In this document: in pieces, positions 14,158 to 51,768 of the stretch
Numbering within the stretch: the first letter of the stretch is position 1
Layout of the letters: each line of letters opens with the position of its first letter
Source of the DNA: a virus
DNA: 64,000 nt
Virus record (IMG/VR): IMGVR_UViG_3300029998_000013
Coordinates: 62,001 to 126,000 of that record
Direction: 5' to 3' (one strand)
The notes under the pieces: generated by a model
Told to the model about the DNA's origin: nothing
Database searches by the model: none
The model's input: only the letters and a program-made list of their open reading frames with translations
Translations under genes and position numbers: made by a program

Positions 14158-17100
14158 CTATTTACAATTAATTTTTATTTTCTTTTCTTTAATAGATTTT
14201 TGTAGCCAATCTCTAAAGTTAGCGTCAAAAAATATTAAATTAGCATTCTTAACATCTTTGCTAATATCTCTTTTATTAAAACCTGTAATGTCTTTTACAG
14301 ATGCAGAAAGTAATCCTTCTAAATCTTCAATGTTTAAATCATTAAATGATTCAGCACTTAAATCTTCAGACACTTCTGCTAAACCAGCCACAATACCATC
14401 AAATAATTGATTTTTAAAATCATCTTCAATATCAGCCAATCCATTGTCTAATAACTTTTGAGATAAATATGTTACTAAGTCTTCTTCAATAGTAAAGGCA
14501 TCTAAGGCCTTTTCTTTAAGTTTTCCAACTCGATGCCCTTCAATAATTTTATCATATAAAGTAGGTTTGGTATATCTTAAAGACGTTAAAAATAGATGTA
14601 AGAATTCATGAACAACATCATCTTCATTTGCTTTACTATTATACATATTAATTACAATAGTAGGTTTTCCATCTACATCGGGCTCAATTCAAGCCTTTTT
14701 ATTTTTATATTTCCTATATTGTTCATCATTTGTTGTATCTCAATTTACTCTTGAGACTTCAATATCAAATAAATTTGCAAACTTATAACCTACATAGGCA
14801 GCTAATTCATCACGATCAGTTAGTGTTTTTCTGCTTGGTTTAATATCAAGATTAGCATCCAAATCTTTTTGATTTTCAGAAGTAAATGGAAGATACATTG
14901 CTTTAAATACTTTATCATTAAATGCTTTATCAATATTTAAAGATCGGCGAATTGTAATAATTTTTCCATCGTTATTAATTCCATTATATTCTAAAGTCAT
15001 TATACCATTGTCTGTATTTACTACTTTAAACATTTTATTACTAAAGTCAATATTAGCACTTCCTGCAAAAGATTTAGCAAAACAAAAATAAGTATTTGTC
15101 TTAATATAATCTCTAAATTTATTATAATTTGGTCTAAGAATTCCACCTTTATCCTGCAAGATATACTCTTTTAAAGATTTGTTATATCTTTTAATATAAC
15201 CATTATCCTTTTGTAAAAGAAATAATTGTTTACCACGAACATTTTGAAGTTTATTTAAGTCCTTAATTAGCTCTTCAGTTACATCACTAAATTGATCTGC
15301 AATCGCATCCATACGAGGCCCTCATCTAACACTGCCAACATCATAATTGCCAGATTTTAATAGAGTGGGACTTATATTATCATTTACAAGTTTTGGTATA
15401 ACATAACGAGCAGGTACTAATTTAAAGCCATTAGCTTTATCAAGCATAAATCTATTTGTATCAATTTCATCAGCACTATTAGCTGATACTAATGTAAAAT
15501 TATTAAAATCAGCCATTGTTCTTCCATCTTCTGGAGCAATATCTCTTTTAGTAATAAATAAATTAGCTTTAGAAAAATCAGCAAATTCATAACTATGTCC
15601 AACGTCTACTCCATTTTTAATTTGAAGACGAACTGCATAGTTATCCTTTTTACTAATGATTTTATATAGAGTCCCTGAATTTTCTTCTTCTCCTGGAATT
15701 ACAAAGTAATCTCCGTCTTGAGCTGCTTCTGCAGTTAAGAAATAGGAAAAATTAGCATCACGAACTGATTGTTCTTTTAGATAGATATTGTCATATTCTT
15801 TAGCTACATCTTGTAACTCTTTAATTGTTAACTCCGGTAACTTAGGAGTAAACATTTCTACAATACTTTCTCTTGGTTGTGCAATAATTTTCTTAAGTGT
15901 ACGAGTTTTATCTGCATCTCTTGTTTTAACAATAATATAAACTTTATCATCAGATACAGCAGCAACTTGATTATAGAAAACGGAATCAGGATGGCCTTTG
16001 ACTCTAGTTACGATTTTAACAAAATCTTTGGGTTTAATTGGTAGATAATTCTTTCCTACTTTTTGAACGCGATCTAATGTTTCTAATAAATCACGTTTTT
16101 TACTTCATTCTTTATCTGTAAAGCTATCACTCAGTTCACTATTCAAAATAGTAAATGATTTAATATTTCTAAAGTCTACAGGAAAAGAACGACGTTTTTC
16201 AGTCTTAGAATTTAATCTAATTTCTCCAGGGAATATATCTCGAACAACACCTCAAGAATTTTCAATTGTTTTATTTTTCTTTTTATCGTAATAATCATAG
16301 CTAACAGTTGACCCACGTTTTACTAAAGTTTTAACAATATCCTCAGGTAATTTCTCCTGATCTTTAACTGTTACAATGAATTCTCCAGGAAATTGTTGCT
16401 CTAATGTTAAGGCATCTTGATGACTATCTATATCCTCAATTGGATTTAAATTATTTAATTTTTTAAAATAGAATAAACTATCAGGAGTTAATATAATAGA
16501 TTGATCTTTAGCTAATTCAGTTATGATACCATTAGCAGACCAAAATCCAGAATCTATTCTAATTCCACCCTTTTCTCTAACAATACTTGTGGGAATCAAA
16601 TTCATAGTTCAATTTGAATCTGACCTTTTTCCTTTTTTAACTGGGCGACCATCATTCAAAGGAATGCTAATAATATCTTGATATAGTTTTACATTAGATA
16701 ATGCTCAATCTTGTAGACTATTAATATCATCTTTAGTTATTTCTTCAGCTTTATCAAAATGATAATTAATTACATTCTTATGTATAAAATTTTGAATGGA
16801 TTCTTTACGTTGTTTCTTAAGAAATTCCCTATTTTCTTGATCCTCTTTATTAAACTCTTCTAGAACTTGAGCCATTCGACTTTTAGTCCCACTTCCATAC
16901 TTATCAGGACTGATATGTTTAAATAAAGTTTGTAGTACTTTTATATGTTGATTTTTACGCTTCTGTAATTTAGTAACAAATGTTTCTTCGTCAGTTTCTT
17001 CGGGTTCATAATTAACTAATAAATCATCAGCAACTAAGTTAATAATTTTATCAATTGCAGATTTAGTCCCAGTTTTATGAGATAACATCTTAAAGAACTC

Positions 17101-18057
17101 TGGATCCATATATTCACCCTCTTCATTAATATAACCTAAGAAGAATTTTTTAACATCAAAATTTGTTAAATTAATTTTATTTGTATAACCTTCATTATAT
17201 TCTTTAACAATACTAGATACATCTGATGCATTTAATTTTGATGAAAGATAAGTAAATATTCCTAAGAATAAAGAAAGTTCATTAGAATTATTATAAAAGA
17301 AAATTGGGGTTTTAGTAGCTTCATCTTCAACAACAATAGTAGTATTTAAAGAACCCTTATTAAAGGTTGCATTATAAAATGATTTAGTAGATCGAACTCC
17401 ATTTTTATTTGGAAATGCATAACCAATTAAATCTTTTAAAGCAGTTAAAGCATCAGAACTTTGATTAGCACCTTGCAACTTACTTATTTCAGAATTAAAA
17501 GAAGTAATCTGCTCATTAACAGATTTAACCCCAATTAAAGAATCAACTTCAACTTTTTGAAAGTACTTTTGACTTAATGTTTTATTTAATTCAAATAATA
17601 AATCAGATATAGAAATCTTACTTTCTGTTCCCCTAGTATTTCTTTTAATAATAGTAGCATCACTACGTAATATTTTAAATAAAGCATCATTAATATTTGT
17701 AATAGTTAATTCTTCATCTATTTTAGAGTTTATTCTATTAATGAATTGTTCTGTAATAGAAGTTTCTAATTCAGGATTAATTGCACTTATAGCTGCAGAA
17801 ACTTTAGGGCCTGATAAGCCTGAATTAATATGTTCAGAGATTTGATCTTTAATTGCTTTAAGTTCTTTGTCTCTAGATTCTTCAGCAGTTGTAACAGCTT
17901 CTTCGCTTAAGTCATCTGCCGAGAGAGCCTCGTTTTTTAATGCCACATAATCCCTTAATAATCTATCTAATAGGGGAGTTTGGGCGGCTCTAGTAAGGTT
18001 AGCGGAGAATTTTACTTCTCCGCCACCTGGTAATTTTATAATATAAAAACAATTCAT
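14158..18057 (-). CDS. Giant virion protein, 1299 aa, with HExxH zincin motif
   Basis: Continuous from ATG at 18057 to TAG at 14158-14160 (TAA follows in frame) when TGA is Trp; TGA codons at 16705, 16252, 15322 and 14740. The N-terminal ~450 residues are helical and charged, followed by beta-rich segments with repeated KIISKKDNY- and FVIPGEE-type strands. Near the C-terminus, DVVHEFLHLFLTSL contains HEFLH (His1150-His1154), the zinc-peptidase motif, in a helix as expected for a zincin. A protease acting during virion maturation or on entry is an inference. It starts one base past the stop of the polymerase gene and is in a different frame, so it is a separate polypeptide. Confidence 0.85.
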
Positions 18058-18058
18058 A

Positions 18059-21000
18059 CTACTCGCACTTATAATTTATGAGTAAATTTTGACTTCTTAA
18101 TAATGATCTTATTGTTGCAACAGTTTGGTAATAAACACTTTCTTGGAAATTATTCTTAGCGGCTGTGGTATTAATAACGAAGTCACTATTTTTAATTTGA
18201 ATCATATCTCCATCAAGAAGCATTTTCCCTCTTACTTGATTAATTAGATAAAGAATATTATTAATCTGTTGTTCTTTTAAAATCTTCTTCTTTTTTTCAG
18301 TTTCATTTGTAATTTCAAAAATATCTTTGATACCTCTATCAACTCTTGAACTAAACATTAAATAATCATTGGCAATAGATGATCCATCTTTTACATAATC
18401 TTGAAATAATGGAGTAAGACGATTATCACCGTATGTTTCATTATTTACAATTAAATTATATAGATAAAATAAATCTTTTCATTTAACAATTTGACCATTT
18501 AATGCTGTAACTTTATTTGATGGCTCAATTGAGCTATCAATTTTATTAAATTCATTTAATAATTTAAGAAAGTTTTCAATACTAATAGGATTATTTAATG
18601 TACTAATTCCATATGTAGGGGCTATTTGTGTACCAAATAAACTAAATGGATTTCTCATACTTCTTAATGTTAATGTATCACTTAGATCAGATGTTTCTGA
18701 TTTTTCTAATACACTAAATAGAACTTGTTCCATCATTATTTTAAAATTTGCTATTCCATAATCAGATGTTAAATCAATAATAACATCATTGTCTGAACTA
18801 GGTTCAATTTTTAAAACCATATCTCCAACATGAGGAATTTTATTTTTAGTTGCTCCTCTTAAATCAAGTGCTGAATGCATTTTGGCTCCGTCTGAAGTAT
18901 ATAAATGAACATTTGGAACGCCAGCTAATTTTAATAAATCTTTTGCACTAAATTTAAAATTTGCAATTTTAGACTCTTTATCAGCTGTTTTTAATCAAGA
19001 AGAAATCATATAATTATCAAATGCCGAAAATGCACGACTTAACATTTTATCGTCCATAGGAATTGGTAATGCTGAATTTCCTCTTTGATGTTTTAATACT
19101 TGATCTTTCTTAACATCAGTTGTTAAAGCTTTTTCATTTGTTCTAAGTAAATCTCTATAATATGAGAATACAAAGTTAAACTTTTTTGATGTTAATAAAG
19201 CTATATTAAAGGTAGTTCCTACACTATGAATCATTTCTCTAAAGTGAGGCACATTTTCTAATACATCAAATACATTAACTGTATTTTTAATTAAATTATA
19301 GTAATTTGCTGCAGCCTTTCTATATTTATCATTTTTAGGATGAATAAAATGACGACAGTTAAACTCTCCACCAATAATTGATTTTGTATGAATTTCTTCT
19401 TTATTATAATAATTAATTGATGATACTTCAATTTCTGAAGCATTACGAAGTGTGTCAAAAATATAATCAAAAACTTGAGTCTTTGAGTCATTAGACATAC
19501 TATATAATTTACTTAGATGTGTATTATTATTTAAAATAGCTAATACAATATCCTTATAAGTTTTATTAGTATCTGATAGAGTGGTAGTTTTTGTTCCATC
19601 TGCATCAGTTTGACTAATACTATTTACTACTACATTAGTTTCAAATTCAGCTCTTACAGCTGCAACAACTTGATTATAATCATCAGTTCCTTTTAGTAAA
19701 CTATTAGCTGTTATATTCTTTAAACTCTTAAGTTTAAAGCCAAAAACTTTATGTTCAGAATTAAACATTGCACTTTCAATAACATTTAGAAAATTGTTTA
19801 GAGCATCAACGTTTGCATCAATAGAACCATTAACTCCAAAAATCTTAGCCATTGCTCCAAATTCAGCACCTCCATTAAAGATGTCTAAGAAAGTTTTACA
19901 AATAGCATCCATATCAGTTCTTGAATTATTATATAATGCAAGTTTACCTTCAATTTGTTGATATTGTTCAACTAATGCTTCAGCATAAACTGGTTTAGTT
20001 GTCAGAAAAGTATTTGATTGAATATTATGAGCTACATATTGTGCTAAGTCAGAATTCATATAAATAGAAACATCTTTAGCAGAGAAACCTACAGCTAACA
20101 TATATAAATGCATAGCGGCTAAGTCAACCACAGCATTAATTTTAGCCATAATTAATTCTTTAGCATTATCAGTTGCTCCAGAAATAAATCCAGAAATTGC
20201 TAATGCAGCTTGAATTCTATTAATTTCACTTAATTCTTTTTGTAAGTCTTCATATCCATATAATCCTAAAATAGATTGAAATGTAGATTTAGAAACTCTA
20301 GTGTCAGCAATACTTACTCTTGTATGTTTTTTTAATACTCCAGTAGCAGGATCTTGCATATAAAATTCCTTTAAGAAGACTTTATTATCAGATATTCCTT
20401 TAATGCTAACTAAACCTTCATCTAATTTTTCATACCAACTATTATAGTAATTGCTAAGTGCAAAGAAAACTTTTAATCCATTAGCTCCAATACCTACGTC
20501 TTGTTTACCCACAGCTGCTTGATATTGTTGTTTAAACATGCCAACAGCATTAGTAGACGAGAAACGATCTTTTCTCCTAATTAGATTTTTTGTAAAATCG
20601 GTTAAAGTTTTAATCTTAAGATCTGCTTTAGCTCTACTATTGATTGTTTTAGTTAAATCTGCAATTTCTGAATCAGTAATTGAGGCAGGATTAACATCAG
20701 CTAAAGTAGAGATTATAGTAAGTAAAGGAGCTTTTTCTCCAGAATTACTAAGTCACTCAGTTAAGATTTTATCAATTTGTTGAAGTCTTACTTTACCAGC
20801 CTCTGCCGCCCCAGAGTGCCACATATTAATACTAATAGGCACAGTAGCTAATAATTGATTACTTGGAGCACTAATTGTACTGTTAATCTTAGACACAATT
20901 GAATTTTGCAAAGTATGTCTAGAAGAAATATAATCAGTGTATTCATTATAAAAGTTTAAGAATGTTACTAATTTTGATACAGATGGATCAGTTAATATTA

Positions 21001-24000
21001 CTTGATTTGATAAAAGTTTAATATCTTGTGGCGCTAATTCTGAATCAGTTAATAGATCCTTAATAGTTTTTGCCCCTTTATTAATTTTTCTTAAAACTTT
21101 ACCTAATCTATTTATATCTTCTGGTGCCATTAACTTAGCAATTTCAAATGAATTAGATAAGTTACCTGCAATATTATTAAATCATGCAGCATCTTCATTT
21201 AAATTAATAGCTCTTTTAAGAATATATTGAGGAGAACTTTCATTCGTAACACTTACTAAAGTATTAGATGGTATAGGTAATGTACTTAATGCATCCAACT
21301 CTTCTTTAGTATTGTAGTCAAACATATTAGTCCATAAATCAAATTGAGAACCTTTATTAAATCCATAACCCATAATGTAGGCCTTATCAATATCAAAGTC
21401 AGATCCCTGTAATCAAATTTGTCATACTGATACATAAGCATTATTACTTGGTGTATTAAAGTATGCAATATTTTTCATAGGCATAAAAGACTGCATTGAT
21501 TGAGCTGGAATACGAGCGGCAATAAATTCATGTGATTTCTCTCATGATGCATATTGTTTCTTTGCTAATTTTTCAATAATTTCTTGTCTATTATTATTAA
21601 ATCAATTAGCGTCAGGAATATCAGATTGTCCAATCTTAACCTTAGTTAAATTATAATAATATCTTAGTAATTCATTACGTAAATTAACTGGCTGTAAAGT
21701 AGATTCATTGATTAAATCTTCTGTTGTATCATTCATTAGAGGAATAATAGCTCTAATCTCTCTAGCTGATTCTATAAACTCTTTAAATCATTTACCAGCA
21801 TTAGGATTAAATACATACTTAGATTTTGTTGTATTGGCTGCTTTAATGTATAAATAATCATCGCCATCTTTAACTAAAATTTTAGAGCCTAGTTTACCAC
21901 CTGGCTTCTTATATAAATACTCGCCAGTTTCCCCTAATCTATAAGTTACTGTTTTACCATCTTCTGAGTCCTGTTTTAAAATATTTCCATTTTGTTGTTC
22001 AGTTGGAAGTTGAGAAACTAATCTAACAAATATACGTTTCCCATTTTGTAAAACAATTTTAAAATCTGCAGGAGTTGAATCTTCTGCATAATCTTCTTCA
22101 AGCAATTCTTTAAAGTAAGAGGAACCCTTAGCTTTAACAGTAGAGATAGTATCATTACCATTACTGAAAGTAGATTTATAAATATTAGGAAGAACTAATT
22201 CAGCAGCACTAAATTTATAATTATAAACTTGTTGTGAGTTATTTGTTAAATAATGTTCTTTAACATCATCAAAAATATCAGCTACTAAGGAATCATTCCC
22301 AAAATAACCTGTAAAATTAATAATGCCATTTGCATCAGTAAATTTATTTAATTCTTGTAAAGTAATACCTTGGTCAAGTAAGTCTAGATTTCTTTGGGTT
22401 CAGAATCTAAAGTAATTATCCAATTTATTAATATCAAGTTTGCCTTCTGCAGTTAAAGTATTAAATCTAGCTGCAAATTGCATTAAAGTATTTAATTCTT
22501 GAGGAGTAATATCAGTATCATTTTTATTAGCTAAGAAGTCCTGATGCTGAGTTAATGAGTAACGTAATCTTACTGAATCTAAATCAAATAAGGTTTTTGT
22601 TGTCATAGTAGGCAAATATCTCTCATTTTCATTCATTTGGGTAGTAAATGATTGACCTGATGCCGCAGCTTTTTTAGACATTAATAACAATTCAATAACA
22701 CCTTCTCATCCCATTGGTTTATTTAATCCAAATACTTTTGCAAGTAATAATTGAAGTCTACCAATTGTTTTTTGAATTCATGATAAGCTAGGATTTTGTT
22801 CAGCTTGGCGTGCTAATAATTCTTCTATGATTTCTAATTGACCTTCTTCTGAGTTAAGATTAACACCATATTGAGTGGCCATATCTTCAACTGATGCCAT
22901 ATTAGAGCCATCTAATAATTTAGAAGCATTCTTATATAAATAGTCTCTGGCAGATAATAATATATTTTTATATGTATTAGCATCTTCTCCATTAAATAAT
23001 ATACTTAGTCCATGATGACCTACTGCTTCATGAATAATCAATTGATTTCCTTTAGCGGTTCCTTTATAAGCCCCATTTAAAGTAATCTCTTGTGTACTAG
23101 GATTATAGAACGAATTAACGATTGCATCAATTCCAGCAGCCTTAGCAATTCCTCGCATAGAACCCTCATCAACATATTGTACTTTTAATTTATTTAAACC
23201 AGCTAAAGAAAGACTTGTATATAATTTAGTATTTCTTTCTTTTTCTAACTTAGTGTCAAGGGTGGTGGCCACTTGAAAAGTTAATTCTGCAGGTTTTAAA
23301 TCACGTGTAACTCGAACTACTTTCTTAATAGCTTTATTTGGGCCATATGCTTTAAGTTTATAATATTCAGCAGGATTAGAAATTTCTCATAATTCTCCAG
23401 TTTCTGGATTAATTACAGTATCTGCTAAATTAATTTTATCAACTGTAGTATCAACATCTGGAAGTAATTGTTCAATATAACGATCAATTATTTCATTATT
23501 TGTTAAAGTTTCCTCTCCAGGGATATAATTATCAAGAGCTTCGCGAATCATGTCTTCTTGAGAATAGATAATCATTTTTTCAACACCATCAACAATCTTT
23601 GGAACTTCATAAATTTTATACATTTTATGTGAGGGGTTTAAGATAGCTCCTAAACCACTATAATAACGAGTTAAGAATTTATTATTAAGTTTAACAATTA
23701 AATCTCTCATAAAATGTTGAAAGAAGTTTTTATTGCTAAATGGTAATAACTCCCCATCTTTAAATGATTCGGCAATTGAAGTTGCTAAATCGACAGAAGG
23801 AGAATTTGCTAAGTGTCTCGCAAATTCCTTAGATAATGATTCATATAATTTATTTAATTCTGCTTCTCCTAATTTAGAAATAGAATTTACTCATGGTTTT
23901 GCAGCTTGTTGAATTAAACGAGCTATATCTTCATAAGCTTCATTAGCTATTCCAGCTGTTCTTTCATTCTGTGATAAGGCTGAAATTACTTGTGTTATTT

Positions 24001-27000
24001 CTTTAATCTTAGCAGCATCTGGACTATGACCAGCATCAAGCTGTGGTCCAATATGAACACTATCAAAACTAAAACTTCTTAATTCTGTGTCTCCAGTAAA
24101 TCAATCAGATGATGGATTTAAGTTAATTGCTCCAGATTTAAAGGCACCACTAGTAGATACAACATGAATCATTTTATCTTTTAATGGATATGCGCCATGT
24201 TCATCTTGATAATTAGTAATAATATGATAAAGAATATTTTGAGAATCTTCATTATAAACAAAAGACCCATCTTCTAAAACCCCAGAGAACTGCTCTCCAA
24301 TAGATTTTCATATATCAAATAAATTCTTTACCTCACGTGGTTCTTCAATAATATTTTCTTCAATATTTAAACCATTCTTATCAATTTGTTGTAAAGTTCT
24401 AACTAATTGATTATCATTAATTTGTAATCCTAGCAATTTAAAAATTTTACCATTTTCTACGAAATGATAATTAAAAGAACTTCCTAAATTAAATTTCTTA
24501 ACAGTAATAGGAAATGCAGATAGCATTTGTTTATTCTTCGAGTAATAATTTACAGGAGATCTTGACGAGGCTTGCATTGAAGCATTTGTAATAACAAATT
24601 CGGCATCTTTTTTAACAGAGCTTCCATAATCAGTAATACCTACCCCAAAACGTTTTAAAGTGCCATCATATTCTTTACCTGGATATGAAGCCGCAATCAT
24701 TTTACTATAAACAGCTGTAATTAAACTAGATCCATCTTGATAGTTAACTCCATCAGTATCCCCACCAATATTATAAACGTCATCTTTAGGGTCCTCAATA
24801 ATAGAGATATTAATTTTATCAGGAACACCAGTTCTAGAACCAAGAATAGCTCGCTCATAAGTAGCTGTAAATAATGAATTACGTTTAGCCATACCAGAAT
24901 ATCTAGCAGATGATTCTTCAGCAAATGCTTCTAAGTTACCAATTTGTGATACATTTCTTTCAGCTAACTTTTTAGCTGTATGCATATATTCGTGCTTAAC
25001 TGTAATATTTAAATATTCATTTCTGAATAGCATATTTGTTAACATCCATCTTTCTAATAATGGATTAATTTCTCCTTTATCATTTTTAATCAGTAATGCT
25101 GGTACTTCTTTAACTGTAGCTACATCTAAATCATCCTCATTATCTTCATATTGTTCTTCATGAGTAATAAATGATTCTAATACAGCTGGATCAATTCCAA
25201 AGAATTTGGCCAGATGAGTTAAATCTCCATCTTCTCCAATAAGCTTACCAAGTTCATTACTGTTAAGTAATAATTTAGCACTTTCTCCATTTCTAAAATT
25301 TAATAAATCAAATACTAAATTATTTAATTCAAAATCAATATATTTATTAAATTTTTGAAGATTTGCAGAGGAGTCTTTTGATGGATCAATTGTATCAGAA
25401 TAGAAATAAAAATTATCAAAAAGGTTTTGATTAACCATTACCTTCTTGCCATAGACAGCATAATCTTGTTCTTCAACAATATCAATACCTGTTTGCTTAA
25501 CAAAAACTAAAAAATCGTCTTTAGTAAATTTTGATAATTTATCATTAATTGCTACAAAAGCATCATTTGATTTAGCCATATCAGTAGATAATGTTAATCC
25601 AAAAATAGTATTAAACTTACTAATAATAGTTCTATATAAATCTGAATAATAAGCAGCTTGTTGATCATGAGCTAATGCTCTTAATTGTGGCACATTAATA
25701 ACTTTATTTTTTTCTGTAACTAATCCGCCAATAATGAAATCTTGATTTAATTTAGCATTTAATGCAATTTGTTTAGCTAAAATAGTATTTTTATCAGAAT
25801 AGTTACCAATAACTACATTATAATATTCAGATTTCCTTTTGCTTAATCCTAAATAGTCAAAAATAAAATTAGCTGTAAAGTTTTCAATAGGTAATCACTT
25901 TGCAGCATCTTTGCTTGATTTTTCATTAACAATTTCTAACTTCGTTGTAGTTCCCAATAGTATTGGTTCTGAACCTAAAAATAGATTTTTATATGAAGTA
26001 TTATTTGCATTATGTGGATCCTGTTCAAAGTTTAATCTACGAAGCATAACTTCACAATCAGAATATGCTAGATTTGCAACTTTGAAGGTTGGGATTTTAT
26101 TTCCCGAAGCAGTTGTAATTGTAGTAACAGGTCTTAACATGTAAGACTGTAAACTTATTTCTAAAGGATCTTGAATGACTTTTAATAAGTCAGCTAATGG
26201 CCCACCTTGTGTTGTGGCTTCATCAAACTTTCCTTGTAAAAGAGATTCTTCTCTAGCAATAATTAAATCAAATACAGTTTGACCATCTTCTCTTCCTGAT
26301 CCATTAACAGTGTTAATCATTAATCTAAGTTGAGAACGTAAAGCTTCAGTCTTTATCTTATCAATATCGTCACTAGATGTTATAGATTGTCCTGATATAA
26401 TCTTATTCTTTAAATCAATTATGTGCTCTTCTGGAATAAGGATTTGAAATCTCTTATTTAAGTATTTAGAAAAGTCTAAATCTGTAGACAAATCGTCCAT
26501 CTCATCAACATTATATAAATGTCGACGATTAGAGTTAGCTAAGAGTTTAGCATAGACACGTCCTTGTGCTTGAATTTGTGATAAATTCTGAGAATATAAT
26601 TCTTTATAAATAACCGATCCAGTACTTGGATTATAAATTGCATACACAGCTCCATTTGAGTTATTTAATGGTTGTGAAATAACATCATATAATGATAAAG
26701 CTGGATTATTCTCTTCTTTTGTTTTTACAGAGTCAAGATATGATGATACGGAGTGTACTACATCAATTACAGCTTTAAAAGGCAAATACATTTGATATAC
26801 TCCAGCATAATTAACAGCATCCGCTTCTTTAATTTTTTGAAAATAATATTGTAATGCTTTCTTTGGATTTTTAGATAAAAGTGTTCATTCAGTATCCTTA
26901 CTTAAAGTAATTAAATTTCGTGTTTGAAAATCTCTAAAAGTCGCGGACAATCCATAGAAGTGAGTCATTGATAAGTATTCGTGAGTTGAATCTCCTTGAC

Positions 27001-27997
27001 GATCTAAGTGTGGAATTGTATTTAAGATTTTTTGAGTAAATTCATCATTAAGTCTATCAACTGATTCAGATTCATGTGTATCAGTATGGGATAATACTTT
27101 TTCTCCCGAAGTTTTAATTTTATACTTTGGAGATCCTAAAGAATCAACAAAAGTATTAAATGATTTAAAATCAACATCTAATATATAATTAAATTCTTGA
27201 CTAATTACACTATCAAAATTAGTTAGAAACACAGCTGCATTATAAGCATCATGTTTAGCTCTAACACCGATACGTTGAATATCTCCCGATAATGAAGGAA
27301 TTACACGTTGTTCTTCAGCAAATCTAATTTTTGGATCAATAGAAGTTAAGTGCTTAAATAAATCTATTAAAACCTTTTTATATGTTTCATAATTTTCTAC
27401 TTGGAATGTATTTCCTACATAGAGATTAGCTGTGAATTTTCTATCAGTATAATAATCATCTTTATGTAAAACGTCTTGAGCAATTAAATAATCTACAACC
27501 GTTTGAAATAATGAATTCTTTAGATCTTGAATTCCTTGACTAATTTCAACGTTGCCTCTAACATAGGTATCACGATTGAGAGGGCCTCTATAGATCGCAT
27601 TTATTACAAGTTCATTAATCCTATTATGAAAATAAGATTTGGCAACTTGTAAATTAGTAAACATATCATCTACAATTGGAGATGTAAACTCATTAATTGC
27701 ATCAGTTCTAAACGCCGCAGTGGGTCTAGCAGCTAGATTTCTAAGTTTACGATTAGATGTTCTAGCTGTAACAATTTCTGGAGCTAATGCACTAAGCCGT
27801 TCCAAAATAGTTGTACTATTGATGTCTTTATATTTTTGTCTTAATTCTTCTATTGTCTCAGTCTCGGTAGTCTCAGGCCCGTAGAAAGCCTGAGCTGCTT
27901 GAAATAGCAGCCCAGGAATATCTGCGGGAGACTTTGCCATTAAGATCTGTCGCCCAAATTTCATGAGTACAGGTCTAGGACATTGTTGTTTACCCAT
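18059..27997 (-). CDS. Giant virion RNA polymerase polyprotein, 3312 aa
   Basis: One frame from ATG at 27997 to TAG at 18059-18061 when TGA is Trp, with more than ten TGA codons. The key motif is SDFDIDKAY: Asp2200, Asp2202 and Asp2204 (21386-21400), the Mg-binding triad of the double-psi beta-barrel RNA polymerases (YonO/crAss type; the phi14:2 virion enzyme is the studied relative). Upstream, MQSFMPMKN and VWQIWLQG lead into it. An earlier DG-rich segment, DTDGVNYQDGSSLITA (about 1080-1095), may be the second barrel (inference). Two zincin-like motifs lie in the same chain, HEYMH (1002-1006) and HEAVGHH (1656-1662). The polymerase is expected to be packaged and to transcribe early genes after entry. 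Confidence 0.9.
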
Positions 27998-28008
27998 ATT
28001 TTATATTT

Positions 28009-31000
28009 TTAACAGGTTCATAGTTTTTCTATATTATCTCAAGCTTCATTATTTGGATCTATAGCCATAACTTTATCCCTAAAATTAGCGAAGTTTTCTG
28101 GTATATCTCCCGTAGTAAAGAGGGTATTTATATCTATCTTATTTTGAGTTAAAATTTCAAGAATAGCAGTAATTTCTTCTTGAACTTTTGGATCAAAACT
28201 ATCACCCTCATCCATTTTTCCATCTAACATTAGTGTTATTCTATTTCTAACTAGATCTTGAATAGAACCTGGAGTAAAATCTAATTGTTTTAATTTTCCA
28301 GTTCAAACTGATTCGGGTTTTGAATTTCCAAGAATTACATTTAGTTCGGCAACTGATTTAGTTTTTAATAAATCTATCTTACCTTTTCATTCTGCGAGTT
28401 TTAATGCAGATTTGACTAATTGAGCTCTAACTACTTTTACTTTTAATTGATCTATATTATCACTAGCTTCTGCAGTAAAAATAGGTTTTTTATTAAATAC
28501 TATTTGATTTAATTCAAATGTAGTGGCTATTTTTTCTTGTTGTTCTGGACTTTTACTCCTTAATATCTTAATTGCTTTCTTAATTTCATCAATAGATACT
28601 CCAGAATTAGCAATCAGATTTCTAACTGTAATAGGCAAAGCTGTAGTTGATGGCTGTAAATTTAATGCTTTTGCAACTTCTAAGTATTCTCCTTCGGAAA
28701 TATTACTTGGATTATTTAAGAAATCTAATTTATCTATAGAAGATTCTGCCCCTAACTTAACTTTATCTCTTAAATCTACTAAAATTCGTGGACCTTCTGG
28801 AGATAAAGTTGTATAAAGATTATCTAAAATACTCGGATGAAAAGTATCACCGACTAATTCAGTTCCTTCGTTTTTTGTTAAAATTGGAATATTATAATAA
28901 ATTGAATCTTTAAGACCCTTTCAATAATTCACCACATCATTTATAACAGAAAAATATTGTTTATCTAAATCAACCCCAATACCATTCTCTTGAATTTTAG
29001 CTTCTAATGCATTTTGTAATTTAAAAATATTTCAGAATGCTTTAAATCAATAACGTCCTTCTTTTTGACGGGCGACAGTATTAATTACATAACTTTTAAA
29101 TTCTGTACGATATTTTGCAGATTCTTCTGGACTAACATTCGTTGGTTTAGGATGAGTTTTAACATAATCTCTAACAGATTCATAGACTTTTTGAGCACCT
29201 TTATTACTATAAGTAATAGCATCTAAAATAGTCTTACTAGCATCTTTATGAGCGTTTGCAAATAAAGCTTTTAAGATTTTTTGTGCTGAATCATCACGAT
29301 TCCCCATTACATCAGTTAATCAAGAATTTCCATCATTTAATAGTTTATCAAATAATTCTACTTTTTCTGTTGCTAAAGAAATTAACAAATCTAATACATC
29401 ATTTCCACTAAATAAACTACCAGATAAAGCATAGACTTCATCTAATGCTTTTTTACCCTGAACAGTTTCAGAAGTTTTTCTTGCATCAAAAATTCTCTTT
29501 GTTAAACTTGGAGTATCAGATGTTCCATTAACAATTTTATCAATTTCTTTTCAAGTACGAGTAGTGCTATGCATTGTGATAAATCTAATAGTTCTATCAT
29601 TAGGTCCAACACCAGTATCATCCATATAAGAAGCTGTAATATAAGGTCGTCCAGCTCTTTGTTCATATGATTTTTTAAGTCTATCTTCAAAGTCTACTTT
29701 ATCAGCATCATTTCAACCTTCAAAAGATTTTCCAAATAAAGTACTTTTAAATAAAGTTTTATATTTTTCAAAATCTTTAGGAAAGAAATTAATAACTGGA
29801 TCATTAACAACTTTAAAGTTAGAGTCATAAAATAATAAACCAGGTGTTTCAGTTAATTCTTTTAAACTCGTTTGTAATTTTTTGCCATTAACTGGTGGTC
29901 ACATACGAGTAGACGTAATATTAACTACTGTTTTTGGATTATTAATTTCAACATACTTACCAATTTCTAAATCATTCATTAGAGTTTCATAAGTTTCTAA
30001 AACTCGCTGATTGGTAGGAGAATTAGCAAATACAGAACCAATAACATTTTTTAAATTTTCTAAATCTGGAAATGTTCCAAGATGCACAAAGAAATCTTCT
30101 CCAGTTGTTGGATTAATAAGTCTATACATTAAATTTAAATATTTCGATTTATCAGGCAAATGTTTACTTGCATCATCATATTTAAGAGCTACAGGTTTAT
30201 TTGAAGCTTCGTGATATAAATCAGCTGTAATAACAAAACCAGAAGTAGTTTTACCATCTTGACCTTTTGGTAAAACATCACTTAAAGTTAATAATGGATT
30301 AGCAAATATTTCTTGAACAGTTTTAATGTCAATAACTTTATTCTTTAAGATTTGATATTTAGCTTTAATTAATAAATTAACTGCTTTATCATAATCTGCT
30401 TTTGGCATCGTTACTTTACTAGCTCTTTGATTTTTAAGTAGATAATCCAATCCATAAGAGAACTTAGAAGCACCTCTTGCAATAGTTGCTTTATCACCAT
30501 TTAAAGAACTGATAACACTCATATCATTGTAAAAGGTATGAACCATTACATTTTGAGAGCCTTTATGTGATTCACTAAAACGAGTTAAAGAGAATTTTAA
30601 TACAGTATCTTGAATATCATTATTTAATGAGTCAGTGACATCAATTCTATCATCAGTTGACATTAACATATCTTCTGGACTTACTGAACCAACATCAGCT
30701 TTTCTATTAAATAAATAATCATTATCAAGAGTAGTTGTAGTTCCTAAGAGTTTTTCAAGTTCTTTAATTCTTGCGGCCTTTAATTCAGTAACCATTGTAG
30801 CATCTAGAGGATTTAACTCGTCTGTATATGAATCAGTTTTTTGATGTAATTCTAAACGTTGTCCAAAATCAATATCAGCATCTCTTACAATAATAGAACC
30901 ATATTTAGCTCTAGATAAATAAGTATAGAAAGCTTTTAGACTATCAAAGATACTCTTTTCTTTTGCTGCGGATAAATTAAAAACAAAATAATCGAACTCT

Positions 31001-34000
31001 CTACCTTGAACCTTTTTAGGAGTTACTGCAATGTAACTAGGTTCAAATATTCCAGCTTTATCTAATTTAATTTTTAAATCATCAGAGATAACTCCAGAAC
31101 TATCTGTTAGAATACCAATAGTTCTTTGCGGGTTTTCTTTAATTGCTTTAGCAATTGAAAGTAAAGCATCCATTGGAACAGCTCCTTCTACTACTTTATC
31201 GCCATTAAAGACATTTGCACTTTGAAAATATTTTAAAGTAATTCCATCTTTTAAGAAGTTCTCAAAGACAGATTGAGTTGATTTTTGAGAATCTAATCAA
31301 ATTCTACTAATATTTCTAATTGTGGTAGAAACAATATCATTATTGTCTCTTTTTTGATTATTCTGTGCTCTAATAGTTAAGAATAAACTCGGAGCAAAAA
31401 TTCCTGAAACACGACCAACATTATAGTTAATCCCATTAAAATCAACACCTTTTTGTAAGGTGTCACCGGCTGCAAATATTTTAACGACTTTTCCATCATT
31501 AGCCATTGCTCTTTTAGATACTTCATTAATTAATGATTGCTCTAAAGCTGTATAATGACTAATTTCATCAATAAAGATAATTTCAGGCAAATCAGTAGGA
31601 ATATCAAATTCAGGCGTACTCTTGAAGAACAGATGATCTTCATAATTAGACTTTAAAGTAGCCCCTTCGGTATTTCGTTCAATGTCAGTATTTTCATCCT
31701 TCTTGATATTATCAATTACATCTTTTAAACCAAGTCTGGCAAATAACTGATCTTTCGATAAAGTATTTGTAGTATATTTAGTTTTATCTAATCCACTTAG
31801 TACATCATTTTCAAGCTTTGTAGCCTGTTCAATTTCAGGACCAGAGAATCAAACATCAAGATGAGAGTTAGATTGAGACATCATTGCTAAGTACAATTTA
31901 TACATTACTGTAGTCTTCCCTGTACCAGCATTACCTAGAATATAAGTTATTAAAGTAGTATCATATGCTCAAACGCCATCTATTTCATCAGTTTTTTGAA
32001 TAGGAGATAACTCTTGAAGAATTTCTGAAAATAATTCAGGATTAATAGTTGAGGCATACATAATTTTAATTCCTAATTCTTGTGTAAAGAATGGAGCTTT
32101 ATCAAATGTAGTCTTTAGTGCATTTAACATTTTAATATTAAAGTCACTTGATTTTACAGACATTGTTCCTAATAAATATAATAACATGTCATTGTTACTA
32201 ACTGCCTTAATGTCTTTTGTAATTTCATCTTGACCATTAGAAGAATAAATACTTTCAATCCTATTATCAAAAGAAAATAGATTACTTAATATTTTTCCAA
32301 TTGCAACTTTATCTTGTATACTATATTCTTTTACATTTTCATAGAATGAATTCTCTATTGTTAATAATTTTTCTTCATCAGATAGATCTGAACTTAAAGT
32401 ATCAGTAATATTAGGAATAATTGCTTTATCCTTATATGTTAAATTCTTTTTAATTAGTTCACTTCAATTATTAATTAAAAGCTTATTAAATTTGGTCTTA
32501 ATTAATATTTGTTCCTTAGCTAGAAGACCTGAGTTATATTTAGATAGATCTTTTAAAAATTGTAATTTTATTCTAACTCTTTCTAACTCTTTAATAATTA
32601 ATGCTGCTTGATCAGAGGTAATTGAAACCAAGTCTTTCACATCCGATTCAATTTTATTTCGCGCAGCAAAACTTTGACGAGCTGCAATAAATCCTATAGG
32701 ATCAGCATAAGTAAGTTGAGTACTACTTGCACCCCTTACAATGCTTTCAAGCATTTTAATTGTATTAATTGAAGTAGTTAGATCAGAAGTTTTATAACCA
32801 CTGGAGAAATAAGAATCTAGGGTTGAACTTTCAGCTAATTTAGCTTCTTCACTCTCTAAAATATCTCAGATTTTTCCAACAGTTAGTTTTGAATCTCGGT
32901 CCAAAAATACATCAAATTTTCTAATAAAATTATATACTGAGTTTTGTTTAAACATCTTATCATTAGCAGTTAATTGATTTAACTCTAAGACAGGTTTAAG
33001 TGCGTTTCCATTATTTAAGATCTTTGATACAACTTGTCGGAGTCCAGTAATATTTGAAAGTAAATATTCTTGTTGACTTGGATTTGCAGATGCAATTGAG
33101 TCAATTGCTCTTTTTATTCCTTCTGGTAAATTTTCTCCTATAGCTCCAGCATATTGTCAAAACCCATCAATAAAATCTGGATTTTCGCTTTGTGATTCTG
33201 ACACCATTTGACGCAAGCCAGATAAGATAGATTGCAGTTCTGAATTAGATAATGAAGCTAATTTTAAGATATCTGCATCAGATAGACTAAATGTAGAGGA
33301 AAGTGCTTTAATAGGTTTTAAATAACCTGAGACAACTTTCTTAGCTAATATTAATAATTCTCCATCCAGATTTTTATTATTTTTTAATTCTCCAATTAAA
33401 GCAGGTAATAAAGCATCTGTTGTTCCAAAAATTGAAGGCTGATTTGCTAACAATTCTTGTTTTAATTCATTTGTTGCGCTTTGAAAATTATTATATGTAT
33501 TAGCATCTTGATTATAGCGTTTGATTTCTCCATTAAGTAGATTTACCACATTATCTAAGGATGTGTTAAATGTTTCTAAAGCATTAATAATATCAGGATT
33601 TGTTCCAGTATATTCATCTCCAGCTAGAATAGCTTTCTTTTCTTCATCAGAAATATTAGCATTATTAACAACATTAGTAAGATCTTCTGTAATTTTAGGT
33701 AAATCAGCATTTACTCCAAGAGTTGAAGCATATCGTACTAATTCATCAATTGGTGTTTGTTCAGTAACTGAAGGTAGAGCTGTGACCTTTCCAGGCATAC
33801 TAATAAATCTATCTAAAATGTCAGTAGATAATCCTTCGGTAGCTATATGAGATTCTTGTAATTGTTGAACTGAGTCATTAAAATTCTTCTTGAATTCTTC
33901 TAATTCTTCATAAGGTACTAACTTAGCAACTAGCTGTCTTTTATTAATTTCTTTGAATAATTCTTCTTTACGTGCGTATTTATTAGGATCAGACTCAGCA

Positions 34001-37000
34001 CCATCAATTGTAATTGAATTAAATTCAGTTACTAATGGATTAAAAGCTGCATCATTTTGTTCTCTAATTTCACCATTTTCACGTTCAATTTGATCACTAA
34101 AGAGTTTACTAATTGTATCATAGTTAAGTTGTTCAGGAGGCAAAGAATCAATAATTGATTCTAAAACTTTAGCTACAAGTTCTTTCTTTTTAATTACTTG
34201 ATCACCAAATTGAATAACTCCATCTTCATCTTCCATAGTAAAAGCTTTTGTTCCCATTAATGTTTGTGACATTTGAGAATTAATAGCCTCTCATGGAAGG
34301 ACTCTATTACCAGTCTTTTCTTCAATTTGTTTAGCTTGTTGTAAGAATCTTTGAACCTTTGGAACAGAACTTTCTCCGTCTTTAGTATCAAATAAATCTT
34401 GAGTAATAGCTAGATTTAATAAATTTTTTCAAGTTTTTGCAGATTCGTCTATATAACCTGATGCTACATGTTCTCCTAATATAGGATTAAATTTTTGTTC
34501 AAGATTTAAATAAGCTTTATATCCTAAGTCTAAATATTGTCTTAAATCTTTATTTGCAACATAATCTGCAAATTCTTTATCAACTCGTTCCTTACTTAAT
34601 GACATTGTGCCTTTGTCTGGCAAATTATTATACGGAGTATTATATTTAGCTTCAACAAACGATTCTTTATCAATTGCAACAAAATCACTACTAATTGGTT
34701 TAGATAAGTATCATGCAGCTTCTCCAAAATAACGTTCAGCTTGATTACCCTCAAGAATATCTTGAACAATTAATTTATAACTATCGCGTTCTTGAGATAA
34801 TCTTTGTACTTCTTCTGAGTTTTCATCAACCTTTTCGCCAGCTTTTCCATTTAAGCTATTAATTTTAGAACTTAAATCTAAGATTTTTCCTCTATAAGAT
34901 TTATACTCTTCTAATATTAAGCCCTCTAAACCAGTTCCTGATGCTTTTTTATCAGCTCTTAATTGCTGAATTAATATATCATCACGAAGAGCTTTTCTTA
35001 CAACTTCTTCATCACTAGATCCTAAATCTTGAGAATTTAATAATCCATCAATAGATTCTACCATATTAATTGCTCTTCCAGCAATAATATCAGCAGAAGA
35101 TAAAGTGCCACTATCAGCTATATCAAATGTTCCATCGTCCTTGATTGGGCTAATGTAAGTATTACCCCATGAACTTTTATGTTCATTGATAATCTTAATA
35201 ATATCATCTTTTTTACCATTTGCAATTAAATCATAAATATCCTCTTTAGTATCAGTAGGCAATTGATGATGAATTCAAGGATCAATTCTTGATTGTTGAA
35301 ATTCAAACATAGATCCACCAATAAGACCACCAACAAAGTTAGCTAAATAATTTTCTAATCCAGCTTGACTAAAGACAGTACTAAAACCACCCATAGATCC
35401 TTGATTTTTAGTTAATCCAAGGTAAGATAAAATATCTACAACTCCTTTAGTAGCATCTAATACAGCTTGTTCTGTAACTTCTTCAACACCTTCTACTACT
35501 GAATTCTTTCACATAGCTTCGCCTAAAACGGCTGGTGTCATAAAAGTATTATGTAAAGCATCTTTGATTTTTCCGAATGTTCCAGCTAAGCTAGCTTTTC
35601 CAACAGAAGCGTCTTTAGCCACTTCTGTTAATCCATCTTTAACATCATCAAGAAATGGCAATATACTTTTTCTCATAAGAGCTTGGTTTGTACCAAGACT
35701 ATATCCTGTAGTTTTATCTAAGAATCAGTCACCCATTCTGTTATTGGCCATGATACCATACTGTCCTGCAGCTGCACTTAAGGCAGCAAAACCAGCAGTA
35801 CGACGATCATATCCTCCAGCTAGTGCTTGAGAATATACATCTGCTGACTGTAACATTGACATATAACCTAATGATAATGCTTTAGATAATTTAGATTGTG
35901 AATCCATTTCAGCAGCTAACTCAGGAATTTTATTAATCGCGTTTTGACGAATTTTTAGAAAATCGTCCACAGATAATTTATTATCAATTAAATCGCCAGT
36001 TAATTCATCATCAATAGTTTTTAAGAGTTCTTCACCTTTTGCTGAAATCTTATTCATTGCAGGCTTCTTAATAAGCATTGATAAACTAGCAGCTGCTCTT
36101 TGTTCATAAATCTGACTAAAGACTGAGCCAACCATTTGACTTAATTGCTCGTAATTAAAGAAAGAATTCGAACCTTGATCTGATACTGATTGTTGGTTAA
36201 ACTTAGACATATAACTTTCAGCTGCTGTTGCAGCATCATTTAAAGGCGTTTTTGTATCCCCCAATAACATTCCTTCAAATGCTTTATAAAATGTTGGAAG
36301 TATAGAACCTAATGAAACAGCAGCTTTTAATCCTCCATAAACTTCAGCAACACCTGCCACAGGAATAAAGAATGGAGCAATTTCAAAGATCATTTTCGCT
36401 GTTGTTCCCATAATAGATTTATCTCTACTATCCGAGTCTAAAAAGTCAAATTGATTTGCTAATGAGCCGTCTGTAGTTAATAAATCCATCGGACTTACAA
36501 CTTGGCGGCCATAAATTTCTCTATTACCTAATTTTTCTAAAAATAGATTTCCATTATCATCATATTTTCATTCACCTTTTTTATGATTGACCATGCGATT
36601 TGTCTCTGGATCTTTATGCATTCCATCCTCATCCCATTGACCATAAACTAATGTATCCCCAAAGAATTTAGTTAATATTCCTAAATCATTAGCAGATTCA
36701 TTACTCCATGTCTTAGTATCTGGATCATAAACCTTATTTTGTTGCGCAAGTTCTCTAACACTTAAAGGGTTCTCGTCAACACTATTAATACCACTCCTAC
36801 TATATAAGTATTTAAATGGATTAAAGTCTAACTTAAACTCTACTTCAGGTGTAAACGTTTTTGATTCTAACGGGCGAGTTATATCAAATGGACTATAAAC
36901 AGCTTTTCCTAGATTATCTAGGAAATTTTCATCTGTCATCTCTTTATAATGTGATGCTGCTTTATTAAAAGCCAAATCAAATCCTGATGAGTCAAACTGA

Positions 37001-37170
37001 CCATCAGGTGTTTTAAACTTATCCTGCACGAATTTACTTTGCAAATAATCCTCTTTCTTATAAAAAGAGGTATTATCTGGCGTAAGATCTGCAGACATAA
37101 GATCATAAGTTGTTGATTCTGGGTTATTTAATGAGGCAACAAATATATCATTAGGTTTTGTTATTTCCAT
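28009..37170 (-). CDS. Giant virion protein, 3053 aa, with embedded SF1 helicase
   Basis: One frame from ATG at 37170 to TAA at 28009-28011 when TGA is Trp. Residues ~150-600 have Gly/Ala-rich hydrophobic stretches (IAPFFIPVAGVAEVYGGLKA, FVGGLIGGSMF) typical of ejected internal virion proteins. In the middle is a superfamily-1 helicase: Walker A GNAGTGKTT (1746-1754), Walker B FIDEIS (Asp1868-Glu1869), motif III GDTLQ (1902-1906), LTIRAQN with Arg1934, VQGREFD (2054-2060) and YLSRAK (2084-2089). The UvrD/RecD-like order and spacing are kept. The N- and C-terminal thirds have no recognised domains. An ejected helicase could help genome entry or early transcription (inference). Confidence 0.88.
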
Positions 37171-50776: not shown

Positions 50777-51768
50777 TATTCAATTTCTTCTAAAAGTCCA
50801 GTTCTATCATCAGTATTTTCAAGAATTTCCTCAGTTAAGAATTTTCCACATTTAATAGCTAATTCATCAGAAGGATTTTCTTGATATTGTTTGAAATATT
50901 CTTCAAGTTGATTCGTAGTATCCTTTGCAAAAATAATTTCATTTGCTTCAATTTCTGCATGTTGAGTAATATCCCCACCTTCATTATATGTAATGACAGG
51001 AATACCTTTATCAGTCACTTGCTCAGCTATTTCTTCTGGAAGATTATTTTTTCTTGCATGTAAGGCTCCTTCTGGAATTACATTAAGTTTACCACCATCT
51101 TGAAACTTTTTAACATCAAGTGATTTATTTCTACTACTTATTAATTTTCGAATATCATCAAGTTTAGCCCCATCTTTTGCACTTAACATTTTAGTTTTAT
51201 AATTTCCCATTAATCCACTCATAAGTTGATTTTGGTTATTACTTGCTATATCCTGTGCATAAATAGCTCCAGCTTGAGCTCGATCATTTGCAGCACTTTC
51301 AAGTGCGCCAGCATTAGAATTAAATTCATCAGCTGCTTGGGTTTGTTTATTAACTAATTTATTTTTACCAAATCAAGTTGATATTAAAGAACCCTTTTTT
51401 CCAGCATTTGTACTTGTTTGCTTCTGATATGCATTTAATGTTAATCCTGAAGTTTGTTGTTTTGCAGTTGTTTTACCAAAAGATCTATTTGCAAAGTCTA
51501 ATGCTTTAATTCCTAATCCAACTGCTGGATTAAACATCGTGGCTGCATCTCCTGCAGCAGATAATACATCATCCGCTCCAGTAGTTAATTCAGCTTGTGG
51601 AATAAAGGCTTTTCCAAGATCCATTGCCATAGAACCAATGATGCCAGCTGGAGAAATTCCTTTCCCCAGGGCACCAGCAGCTTTATTTTGAAATCCCATG
51701 AATGTTTGTAAACCTATTGCAGTTAATCCACCAGCAGGAGTTTGATATTTTTTTATTAATTTAGGCAT
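50776..51768 (-). CDS. Virion protein, 330 aa, with Q-x-GG motifs
   Basis: ATG at 51768 to TAA at 50776-50778 with a TGA-encoded Trp at 51373. It begins MPKLIKKYQTPAGG and contains a second motif VKKFQDGG near residue 215. The N-terminal part is Gly/Ala-rich (GISPAGIIGSMAMDLGKA). The C-terminal third has HARKNNLP, KGIPVITYNEGG and QHAEIEANEIIF, a pattern I recall from conserved crAss-like virion proteins. It overlaps the large tail gene upstream. A structural or internal virion role is likely. Confidence 0.76.

What the first reader, a model, noticed from the sequence alone, without database searches (positions are those of the whole stretch)
18059..27997. 3312-aa RNA polymerase polyprotein with DFDID and two zincin motifs
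The catalytic triad DFDID (21386-21400) identifies a crAss-type virion RNA polymerase. The chain is much longer than the ~2200 aa I recall for the phi14:2 enzyme and carries HEYMH (residues 1002-1006) and HEAVGHH (1656-1662) upstream of the triad. Metallopeptidase-like domains within or beside the polymerase suggest self-processing after packaging, or attack on host proteins on entry.
Basis: partly seen in the sequence, partly recalled or inferred. Interest (0 to 1): 0.7.

Follow-up and report, generated by a model that had tools for sequence, protein, structure and literature searches.

The report
Phage RNA polymerase with inserted protease
A crAss-like gut-type phage carries a giant virion RNA polymerase gene into which, between the two halves of the polymerase's active site, a protease-like domain from a different class of injected phage proteins was inserted; its close relatives lack it, so the polymerase may also deliver a protease into the host.

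Summary
The 3312-aa chain is real, but it lies on the minus strand and is open only if TGA is read as tryptophan. That reading is well supported. It is a crAss-type two-barrel RNA polymerase: DFDID (2200-2204) is conserved, the best solved match to the modelled core is the phi14:2 virion polymerase, and the genome's terminase and portal are crAss-like. Its length is ordinary for this clade (about 2930-3690 aa).

Of the two claimed zincin motifs, HEYMH (1002-1006) is a false lead. Seven relatives read KGEYMH or KPDYMH at that place.

HEAVGHH (1656-1662) is real but of the HExxxH type. It marks a ~210-residue zincin metallopeptidase domain (about 1585-1798) of the kind found in phage 'polyvalent' proteins. 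Evidence: profile match E=1e-14, confident zincin-like model (pLDDT 87), and H1656, E1657, H1661 and E1726 as the only invariant columns in 46 sequences. The domain sits between the two barrels in this phage and one sister, and is cleanly absent from other relatives examined, so one gain is most likely.

Another relative recently gained RNase H and SLOG domains in the same polymerase. I favour an accessory, co-injected protease over obligatory self-processing. A clade-wide HExxH...E motif lies in the neighbouring gene.

The parts
18059..27997 (-). 3312-aa crAss-type virion RNA polymerase (P0001), TGA read as Trp
   Evidence: Open frame under table 4 only, 18 TGA; relatives in 12+ viral contigs and two gut phage records
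23963..24859 (-). Residues 1047-1345: region assigned to the beta-type double-psi barrel; K1287 and G1289 invariant, K1273 nearly so
   Evidence: Invariant columns of 16 RNAPs; barrel assignment itself inferred, because model confidence is low over much of this region
21260..21580 (-). Residues 2140-2246: beta'-type double-psi barrel with catalytic loop
   Evidence: Core model matches 6vr4 (phi14:2 vRNAP) best, then mainly beta'/RPB1 chains over their DFDGD-bearing barrels
21386..21400 (-). DFDID catalytic triad, residues 2200-2204
   Evidence: D2200, D2202, D2204 invariant in 16 RNAPs; coordinates
22604..23245 (-). Residues about 1585-1798: inserted HExxxH zincin metallopeptidase domain (polyvalent-protein type)
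   Evidence: hmmsearch E 1e-14, hhalign 98.5%; AF2 pLDDT 87.3, pTM 0.84; fold matches to zincins and polyvalent proteins; clean gap in 7 relatives
23012..23032 (-). HEAVGHH, residues 1656-1662: H1656 and H1661 predicted Zn ligands, E1657 general base
   Evidence: Invariant in 46 sequences; in helix 59-78 of the domain model
22820..22822 (-). E1726, predicted third Zn ligand
   Evidence: Invariant in 46 sequences, in helix 128-144 of the domain model
24980..24994 (-). HEYMH, residues 1002-1006: NOT a zinc site; variant of a conserved K-x-[ED]-Y-M-H polymerase motif
   Evidence: KGEYMH in L110, L111, L113, L114, L116, L117; KPDYMH in L115
14158..18057 (-). Next gene downstream, 1299 aa (P0003), putative cargo protein with C-terminal HExxH...E motif
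   Evidence: Homologues directly downstream of RNAP in all relatives examined; motif conserved in all that reach it
14596..14610 (-). HEFLH of P0003 (residues 1150-1154); downstream EE 1191-1192 at 14482-14487
   Evidence: H61, E62, H65, E102, E103 invariant in A7; coordinates
28009..37170 (-). Gene upstream in the same block, 3053 aa (P0002), with an SF1-helicase-like P-loop about residue 1746
   Evidence: Weak Pfam AAA_30/AAA_19/UvrD_C_2 matches; Walker A GNAGTGKT

Best explanation
[quoted passage not shown] It is expected, as in phi14:2 and crAss001, to be packaged and injected to transcribe early genes. In the lineage of this phage and one sister, a ~210-residue zincin metallopeptidase domain of the HExxxH type known from injected phage 'polyvalent' proteins was inserted in frame into the linker between the beta-type and beta'-type barrels. 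All predicted zinc ligands (H1656, H1661, E1726) and the general base (E1657) are intact. The domain probably rides on the polymerase into the host cell as an accessory protease acting on a host or defence protein; relatives do without it. HEYMH (1002-1006) is an unrelated polymerase motif. Shown: frame, code, homology, insertion, intact active-site residues, predicted fold. Inferred: packaging, zinc binding, proteolysis, target.
For: RNAP: DxDxD and K1287 invariant in 16 relatives; best solved match of the core model is 6vr4, the phi14:2 vRNAP (Foldseek rank 1, prob 0.85; VIA-align Z 8.3, 172 aa, 4.0 A), followed mainly by beta'/RPB1 chains. TerL matches named uncultured crAss-like phages (27-30% id); portal and TerL PHROGs. 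Insertion: query residues 688->900 fall within 22 nt in G009/G010, and 684->895 within 3 nt in G011; 207-220-aa gap in L110, L111, L113-L117; absent from the aligned inter-barrel stretch of L001 and L002 and from 22 further loci by HMM; carriers form one clade, support 100/100. Zincin: HMM built only from viral polyvalent homologues hits P0001 (43 bits, E 1e-14) and L020 (2e-16) but not L017-L019; only invariant columns in 46 sequences are H67, E68, H72, E137; AF2 pLDDT 87.3; best structural rows are zincins, led by the lethal factor catalytic domain, Z 7.5; best viral rows are 'large polyvalent protein'. Polyvalent source: BF1-TP2 gp68 carries LPD38, ART-PolyVal, PBECR5 and InPase domains. 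Iyer 2017 (PMC5512222) describes the HEXXXH MPTase class and the fusion of MPTases to N4-like vRNAPs. Accessory character: near-identical L117/L114 differ by a 442-aa insertion with RNase H (5.9e-9) and cpYpsA SLOG (2.1e-6).
Against: No packaging, zinc or activity data. The core model is only moderate (pLDDT 65, pTM 0.54) and the beta-type barrel region is poorly resolved. No significant Foldseek E-value to any solved structure for either model; Z 7.5 is in a range where common arrangements also score. No curated library names the domain in P0001. A position in the inter-barrel linker would also suit self-cleavage into beta- and beta'-like parts. No host target is indicated by the sequence.
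Confidence: 0.6

Rival explanations
1. Self-processing: the inserted zincin cleaves its own chain (or the neighbouring giant cargo proteins) during head maturation or after injection, for example separating the beta-type and beta'-type halves.
For: Iyer 2017 proposes autoprocessing for polyvalent MPTases and cites cleavage of P1 DdrB before packaging. The domain sits in a linker where a cut could leave two associating halves.
Against: At least seven relatives with collinear 2930-3490-aa polymerases lack the domain, so the polymerase does not need it. The N4 vRNAP with its MPTase is packaged uncleaved (Iyer 2017; about 3500-residue ejected protein, PMC12633501).
Confidence: 0.25
2. Structural or packaging module: the domain is kept for encapsidation, ejection order or docking to other cargo and is not used as a protease.
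For: In N4 the region with the MPTase is required for encapsidation though the protein is unprocessed (Iyer 2017).
Against: Relatives without the domain keep the same gene block. All four active-site residues are retained in both carriers, which are only about 53% identical over the domain.
Confidence: 0.13
3. Both HExxH-like motifs are zincin sites, as first read.
For: HEYMH occurs in P0001 and L109.
Against: First His replaced by Gly or Pro and Glu by Asp in relatives while the rest of the motif is kept. In L001 only the final His is kept.
Confidence: 0.01
4. The inserted block is an intron or intein removed before function.
For: crAss-like Zeta phages are rich in introns and inteins (PMC7886860); related locus L121 has a group I intron ending just before its DxDxD exon.
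Against: The block is in frame, codes for a full zincin domain with intact active site, uses TGA as Trp like its host gene, and no intron family matches in 9400-44600.
Confidence: 0.02

Closest known systems
Virion RNA polymerase gp66 of crAss-like phage phi14:2 (PDB 6vr4)
   Same: Single-chain two-barrel RNAP; top solved match of the modelled core; similar transcription-block context
   Different: Shorter (2166 aa in the PDB chain); no detectable sequence similarity. A zincin insert in gp66 itself was not looked for
N4-like (Schitoviridae) vRNAP with MPTase / HExxH C1 domain (Iyer 2017, PMC5512222; PMC12633501)
   Same: Giant packaged RNAP with a zincin-type domain on one chain; works-like analogue
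   Different: T7-type polymerase, HExxH rather than HExxxH, domain C-terminal to the polymerase rather than inside its core
Thermus phage P23-45 gp96 tape-measure-fused vRNAP (PMC10770324)
   Same: Two-barrel RNAP (DFDGD) and a metallopeptidase domain on one giant virion protein
   Different: Peptidase belongs to the tape-measure part, not between the barrels; 5002 aa, virus with an extremely long tail
HExxxH-type MPTase domains of phage polyvalent proteins, e.g. Bacteroides phage BF1-TP2 gp68
   Same: Same domain family by profile, invariant residues and fold
   Different: There fused to LPD, ART, PBECR and InPase domains, not to an RNA polymerase; no RNAP in 80 such loci within the 2 kb flanks
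Zeta crAss-like phages (PMC7886860, PMC12386605)
   Same: TGA=Trp in late genes, many tRNAs, large genome, giant RNAP genes
   Different: Zeta membership not tested by phylogeny here; none of the passages found there describes a peptidase in the RNAP

Membership tests
crAss-type two-barrel virion RNA polymerase | DxDxD catalytic loop in a beta'-type double-psi barrel | tested here: met
   D2200/D2202/D2204 invariant; modelled region matches 6vr4 and beta'/RPB1 barrels
crAss-type two-barrel virion RNA polymerase | Second (beta-type) barrel with catalytic lysine on the same chain | tested here: inconclusive
   Conserved K1273 and K1287 and shared homologous region, but model confidence is low there
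crAss-type two-barrel virion RNA polymerase | Encoded in the transcription block of a crAss-like genome | tested here: met
   TerL and portal of the same record match crAss-like phages; giant neighbouring genes
crAss-type two-barrel virion RNA polymerase | Packaged in the virion and injected | not testable with these tools
   Inferred from phi14:2 and crAss001 (PMC7886860, PMC10172136)
HExxxH zincin MPTase of polyvalent proteins | Zn ligands H, H, downstream E and catalytic E | tested here: met
   H1656, E1657, H1661, E1726 invariant in 46 sequences
HExxxH zincin MPTase of polyvalent proteins | Profile similarity to the family | tested here: met
   E 1e-14, hhalign 98.5%
HExxxH zincin MPTase of polyvalent proteins | Zincin core: three-stranded sheet, motif helix, helix with the Glu | tested here: met
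   E16-20, E40-43, E48-52, H59-78, H128-144, pLDDT 87; zincin rows, polyvalent rows; ligand geometry was not measured
HExxxH zincin MPTase of polyvalent proteins | Metal binding and peptidase activity | not testable with these tools
   Needs a purified protein
Polyvalent protein (whole chain) | Several unrelated effector/enzymatic domains on one injected chain | tested here: inconclusive
   RNAP plus MPTase are present, but no LPD or other polyvalent domain reaches Pfam thresholds in P0001; injection not tested
N4-like vRNAP | T7-type single-subunit polymerase fold | tested here: not met
   Core is two-barrel DxDxD type, matched to 6vr4/beta'
Zincin at HEYMH (1002-1006) | Conserved HExxH ligands | tested here: not met
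   KGEYMH / KPDYMH in seven relatives

The most novel reading that the evidence does not exclude
In this crAss-like clade the injected RNA polymerase serves as a chassis that repeatedly captures effector domains at preferred loops: an HExxxH protease between the barrels here, a P-loop domain beside it in L109, and RNase H plus SLOG downstream of the catalytic barrel in L117. The polymerase thus doubles as a polyvalent effector that disables host or defence proteins while it starts transcription.
Probability: 0.35. Interest if true: 0.8.

Novelty: new variant of a known kind. Interest (0 to 1): 0.6.

Why it matters
Virion RNA polymerases fused to zincins were known for N4-like phages (T7-type polymerase) and P23-45 (tape-measure fusion). 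This case puts a polyvalent-type zincin inside the catalytic core of the unrelated crAss-type polymerase, gained once and absent from relatives. It links two classes of injected phage machinery and suggests that the protease travels with the polymerase for a reason. Natural with- and without-domain pairs make the role testable. It also points to a clade-wide HExxH...E motif in the neighbouring cargo gene as a better candidate for general cargo processing.

Tried and rejected
HEYMH as a second zincin: rejected on conservation. The polymerase being unusually long because of the peptidase: rejected; relatives without it are 2930-3490 aa and TAG-coded ones up to 3692 aa. TAG recoding for the window: rejected; only TGA=W opens the frame. 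Pfam, PHROGs and NCBIfam on whole chains and on the domain gave no significant match. PDB by sequence: no convincing match. Foldseek of the domain against the PDB: no E <= 0.001. A search of bacterial/archaeal genome contigs with the domain found nothing. Intron or intein origin of the insert: no support. Homology between the P0003 HEFLH region and the inserted MPTase: weak only (hhalign 19%), and no Pfam match, so its fold is unproven. Polyvalent loci checked for a hidden RNAP: none. The original phi14:2 paper and the 2018 crAss family paper are not held in the library, so earlier mention of a peptidase there cannot be excluded; paper searches for crAss-like plus zincin or metalloprotease returned nothing.

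Full report
CHECKING THE OBSERVATION. The stated interval 18059-27997 is not an open frame on the + strand nor on the minus strand under the standard code. With TGA read as Trp (table 4) the minus strand gives one frame of 3312 aa. The stated residues are right: HEYMH 1002-1006, HEAVGHH 1656-1662, DFDID 2200-2204 at 21386-21400. TGA=W is well supported. At TGA-coded Trp positions, TAG-coded relatives (in which TGA is not a sense codon) carry W, F or Y at many sites. The chain uses TGA 18 times and TGG 4 times, while early + strand genes use mostly TGG, many with no TGA at all. The record carries a UCA-anticodon tRNA. The window is 62001-126000 of a 178,320-base virus record whose terminase and portal are crAss-like.

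THE POLYMERASE. Relatives were found in two unannotated gut phage records and in viral contigs. TGA-coded relatives are 50-58% (L109/L020) or 37-41% identical; TAG-coded ones 22-27%. DxDxD, K1287 and further residues are invariant across 16 chains. A model of residues 1047-2246 is of moderate quality (pLDDT 65, pTM 0.54), but its catalytic part is better (most blocks 70-90). Foldseek ranks the phi14:2 virion polymerase 6vr4 first (E 0.23, prob 0.85), and VIA-align gives it Z 8.3 over 172 residues, followed mainly by beta'/RPB1 subunits over the barrel that bears DFDGD. Sequence profiles do not reach 6vr4. Lengths of 2930-3490 aa (TGA group) and up to 3692 aa (TAG group) show that a ~3300-aa chain is ordinary here.

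HEYMH IS NOT A ZINC SITE. In the alignment the motif is K-[HGP]-[ED]-Y-M-H: six relatives have G in place of the first His, and L115 has KPDYMH. The first ligand and even the catalytic Glu are dispensable while YMH and the preceding Lys stay. In the standard-code relative L001 only the His followed by Pro-x-Lys remains.

HEAVGHH MARKS A REAL DOMAIN. Residues about 1585-1798 are absent as one block from L110, L111 and L113-L117, whose polymerases run straight through the junction; in genome coordinates the two flanking matches are 22 and 3 nt apart. The aligned inter-barrel stretches of L001 and L002 show no such domain, and an HMM finds none in 22 further loci. It is present in P0001 and L109/L020, which form a clade with full support on a tree built with the P0001 insert removed. 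One gain in their common ancestor is the simplest account. Weak similarity to a 3633-aa protein of Bacteroides phage BF1-TP2 led to the source family: that protein holds LPD38, ART-PolyVal, PBECR5 and InPase domains, so it is a polyvalent protein. An HMM built from 57 viral homologues of its HExxxH region, without any polymerase, hits P0001 at 1628-1786 (43 bits, E 1e-14) and L020 (2e-16), and none of the three insert-free polymerases; profile-profile comparison gives 98.5%. Across 46 aligned members the only fully invariant columns are H1656, E1657, H1661 and E1726. The predicted structure (pLDDT 87, pTM 0.84) has the zincin order of strands and helices with the motif in one helix and the Glu in a later one. 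Structural rows are led by the lethal factor catalytic domain, then ArdC, YbeY and jannalysin, and the viral library is led by 'large polyvalent protein' entries. Iyer et al. 2017 (PMC5512222) describe exactly such an HEXXXH class, name lethal factor as a fold relative of the related HEXXH domain in the N4 vRNAP, and note that N4-like vRNAPs are always fused to MPTases.

HOW IT PROBABLY WORKS. Shown: frame, code, insertion site, homology, intact catalytic residues, predicted fold. Inferred from crAss-like biology: the polymerase is packaged and injected (PMC7886860, PMC10172136). Inferred here: the domain is an accessory activity, because the polymerase exists without it in close relatives; a protease that arrives with the polymerase most plausibly cuts a host or defence protein. 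Self-processing is the main rival, but N4's MPTase-bearing vRNAP is packaged unprocessed. A packaging-only role is possible, since in N4 that region is needed for encapsidation.

WIDER PATTERN. The inter-barrel linker of L109 also contains a ~170-aa segment with a Walker A motif (weak Pfam ATPase matches). L117 and L114, 88-91% identical in their flanks, differ by a 442-aa block in L117 that carries RNase H (PF00075, 5.9e-9) and a circularly permuted YpsA/SLOG domain (PF12694, 2.1e-6), both over their curated cut-offs when the segment is scanned alone. Polymerases of this clade thus gain whole domains at loops, much as polyvalent proteins do.

A BETTER CANDIDATE FOR GENERAL PROCESSING. The next gene (14158-18057) ends in HEFLH...EE. 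All seven downstream homologues that reach this part keep HE[FYN]LH and the EE pair. Its fold could not be modelled for lack of jobs, and profile comparison with the inserted MPTase is weak, so it is a conserved HExxH...E motif rather than a proven zincin.

VERDICT. The finding is half right: a crAss-type virion polymerase with one genuine, laterally gained, polyvalent-type metallopeptidase domain placed between its barrels, and one chance motif. It is a new variant of a known kind.

Noticed in passing
window 14158-18057 (-), HEFLH at 14596-14610: Downstream giant gene carries a C-terminal HExxH...EE motif conserved in all relatives that reach it; possible clade-wide cargo protease, fold not modelled.
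   Followed up: partly
L117 8249-18727, residues 2160-2601: 442-aa insertion with RNase H and cpYpsA SLOG domains in the polymerase, absent from the 88-91% identical L114.
   Followed up: partly
L109 8213-18598, residues about 1479-1652: A ~170-aa segment with a Walker A motif (GHPGIGKT) inserted in the inter-barrel linker just upstream of the zincin domain.
   Followed up: partly
G000:161242-161337 (L007 15242-15337, -): tRNA with anticodon UCA and a long variable arm, a possible opal suppressor; a type II shape is odd for a Trp tRNA although TGA clearly stands for Trp.
   Followed up: partly
G000:20579-33585 (L004): Array of 24 tRNA genes, including one with a CUA (amber) anticodon labelled Pyl at L004 4197-4271.
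   Followed up: no
whole record, early + strand versus late - strand: TGA as Trp is concentrated in the minus-strand late block; most + strand genes use TGG.
   Followed up: partly
L121 9121-9354; L001 between 11393 and 12433: Group I intron ends shortly before the DxDxD-bearing exon in L121; L001's polymerase frame is also broken at GSDY/DIDK, but without an Rfam intron match.
   Followed up: partly
window 28009-37170 (-): 3053-aa gene upstream with an SF1-helicase-like P-loop (GNAGTGKT about residue 1746).
   Followed up: no
G000:129497-142402 (L006 3497-16402, -): 4301-aa open frame with 39 TGA codons, function unknown.
   Followed up: no
window 51761-56161 (-): 1466-aa late gene matching PHROG 15100, virion structural protein (E 5.6e-13).
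   Followed up: no
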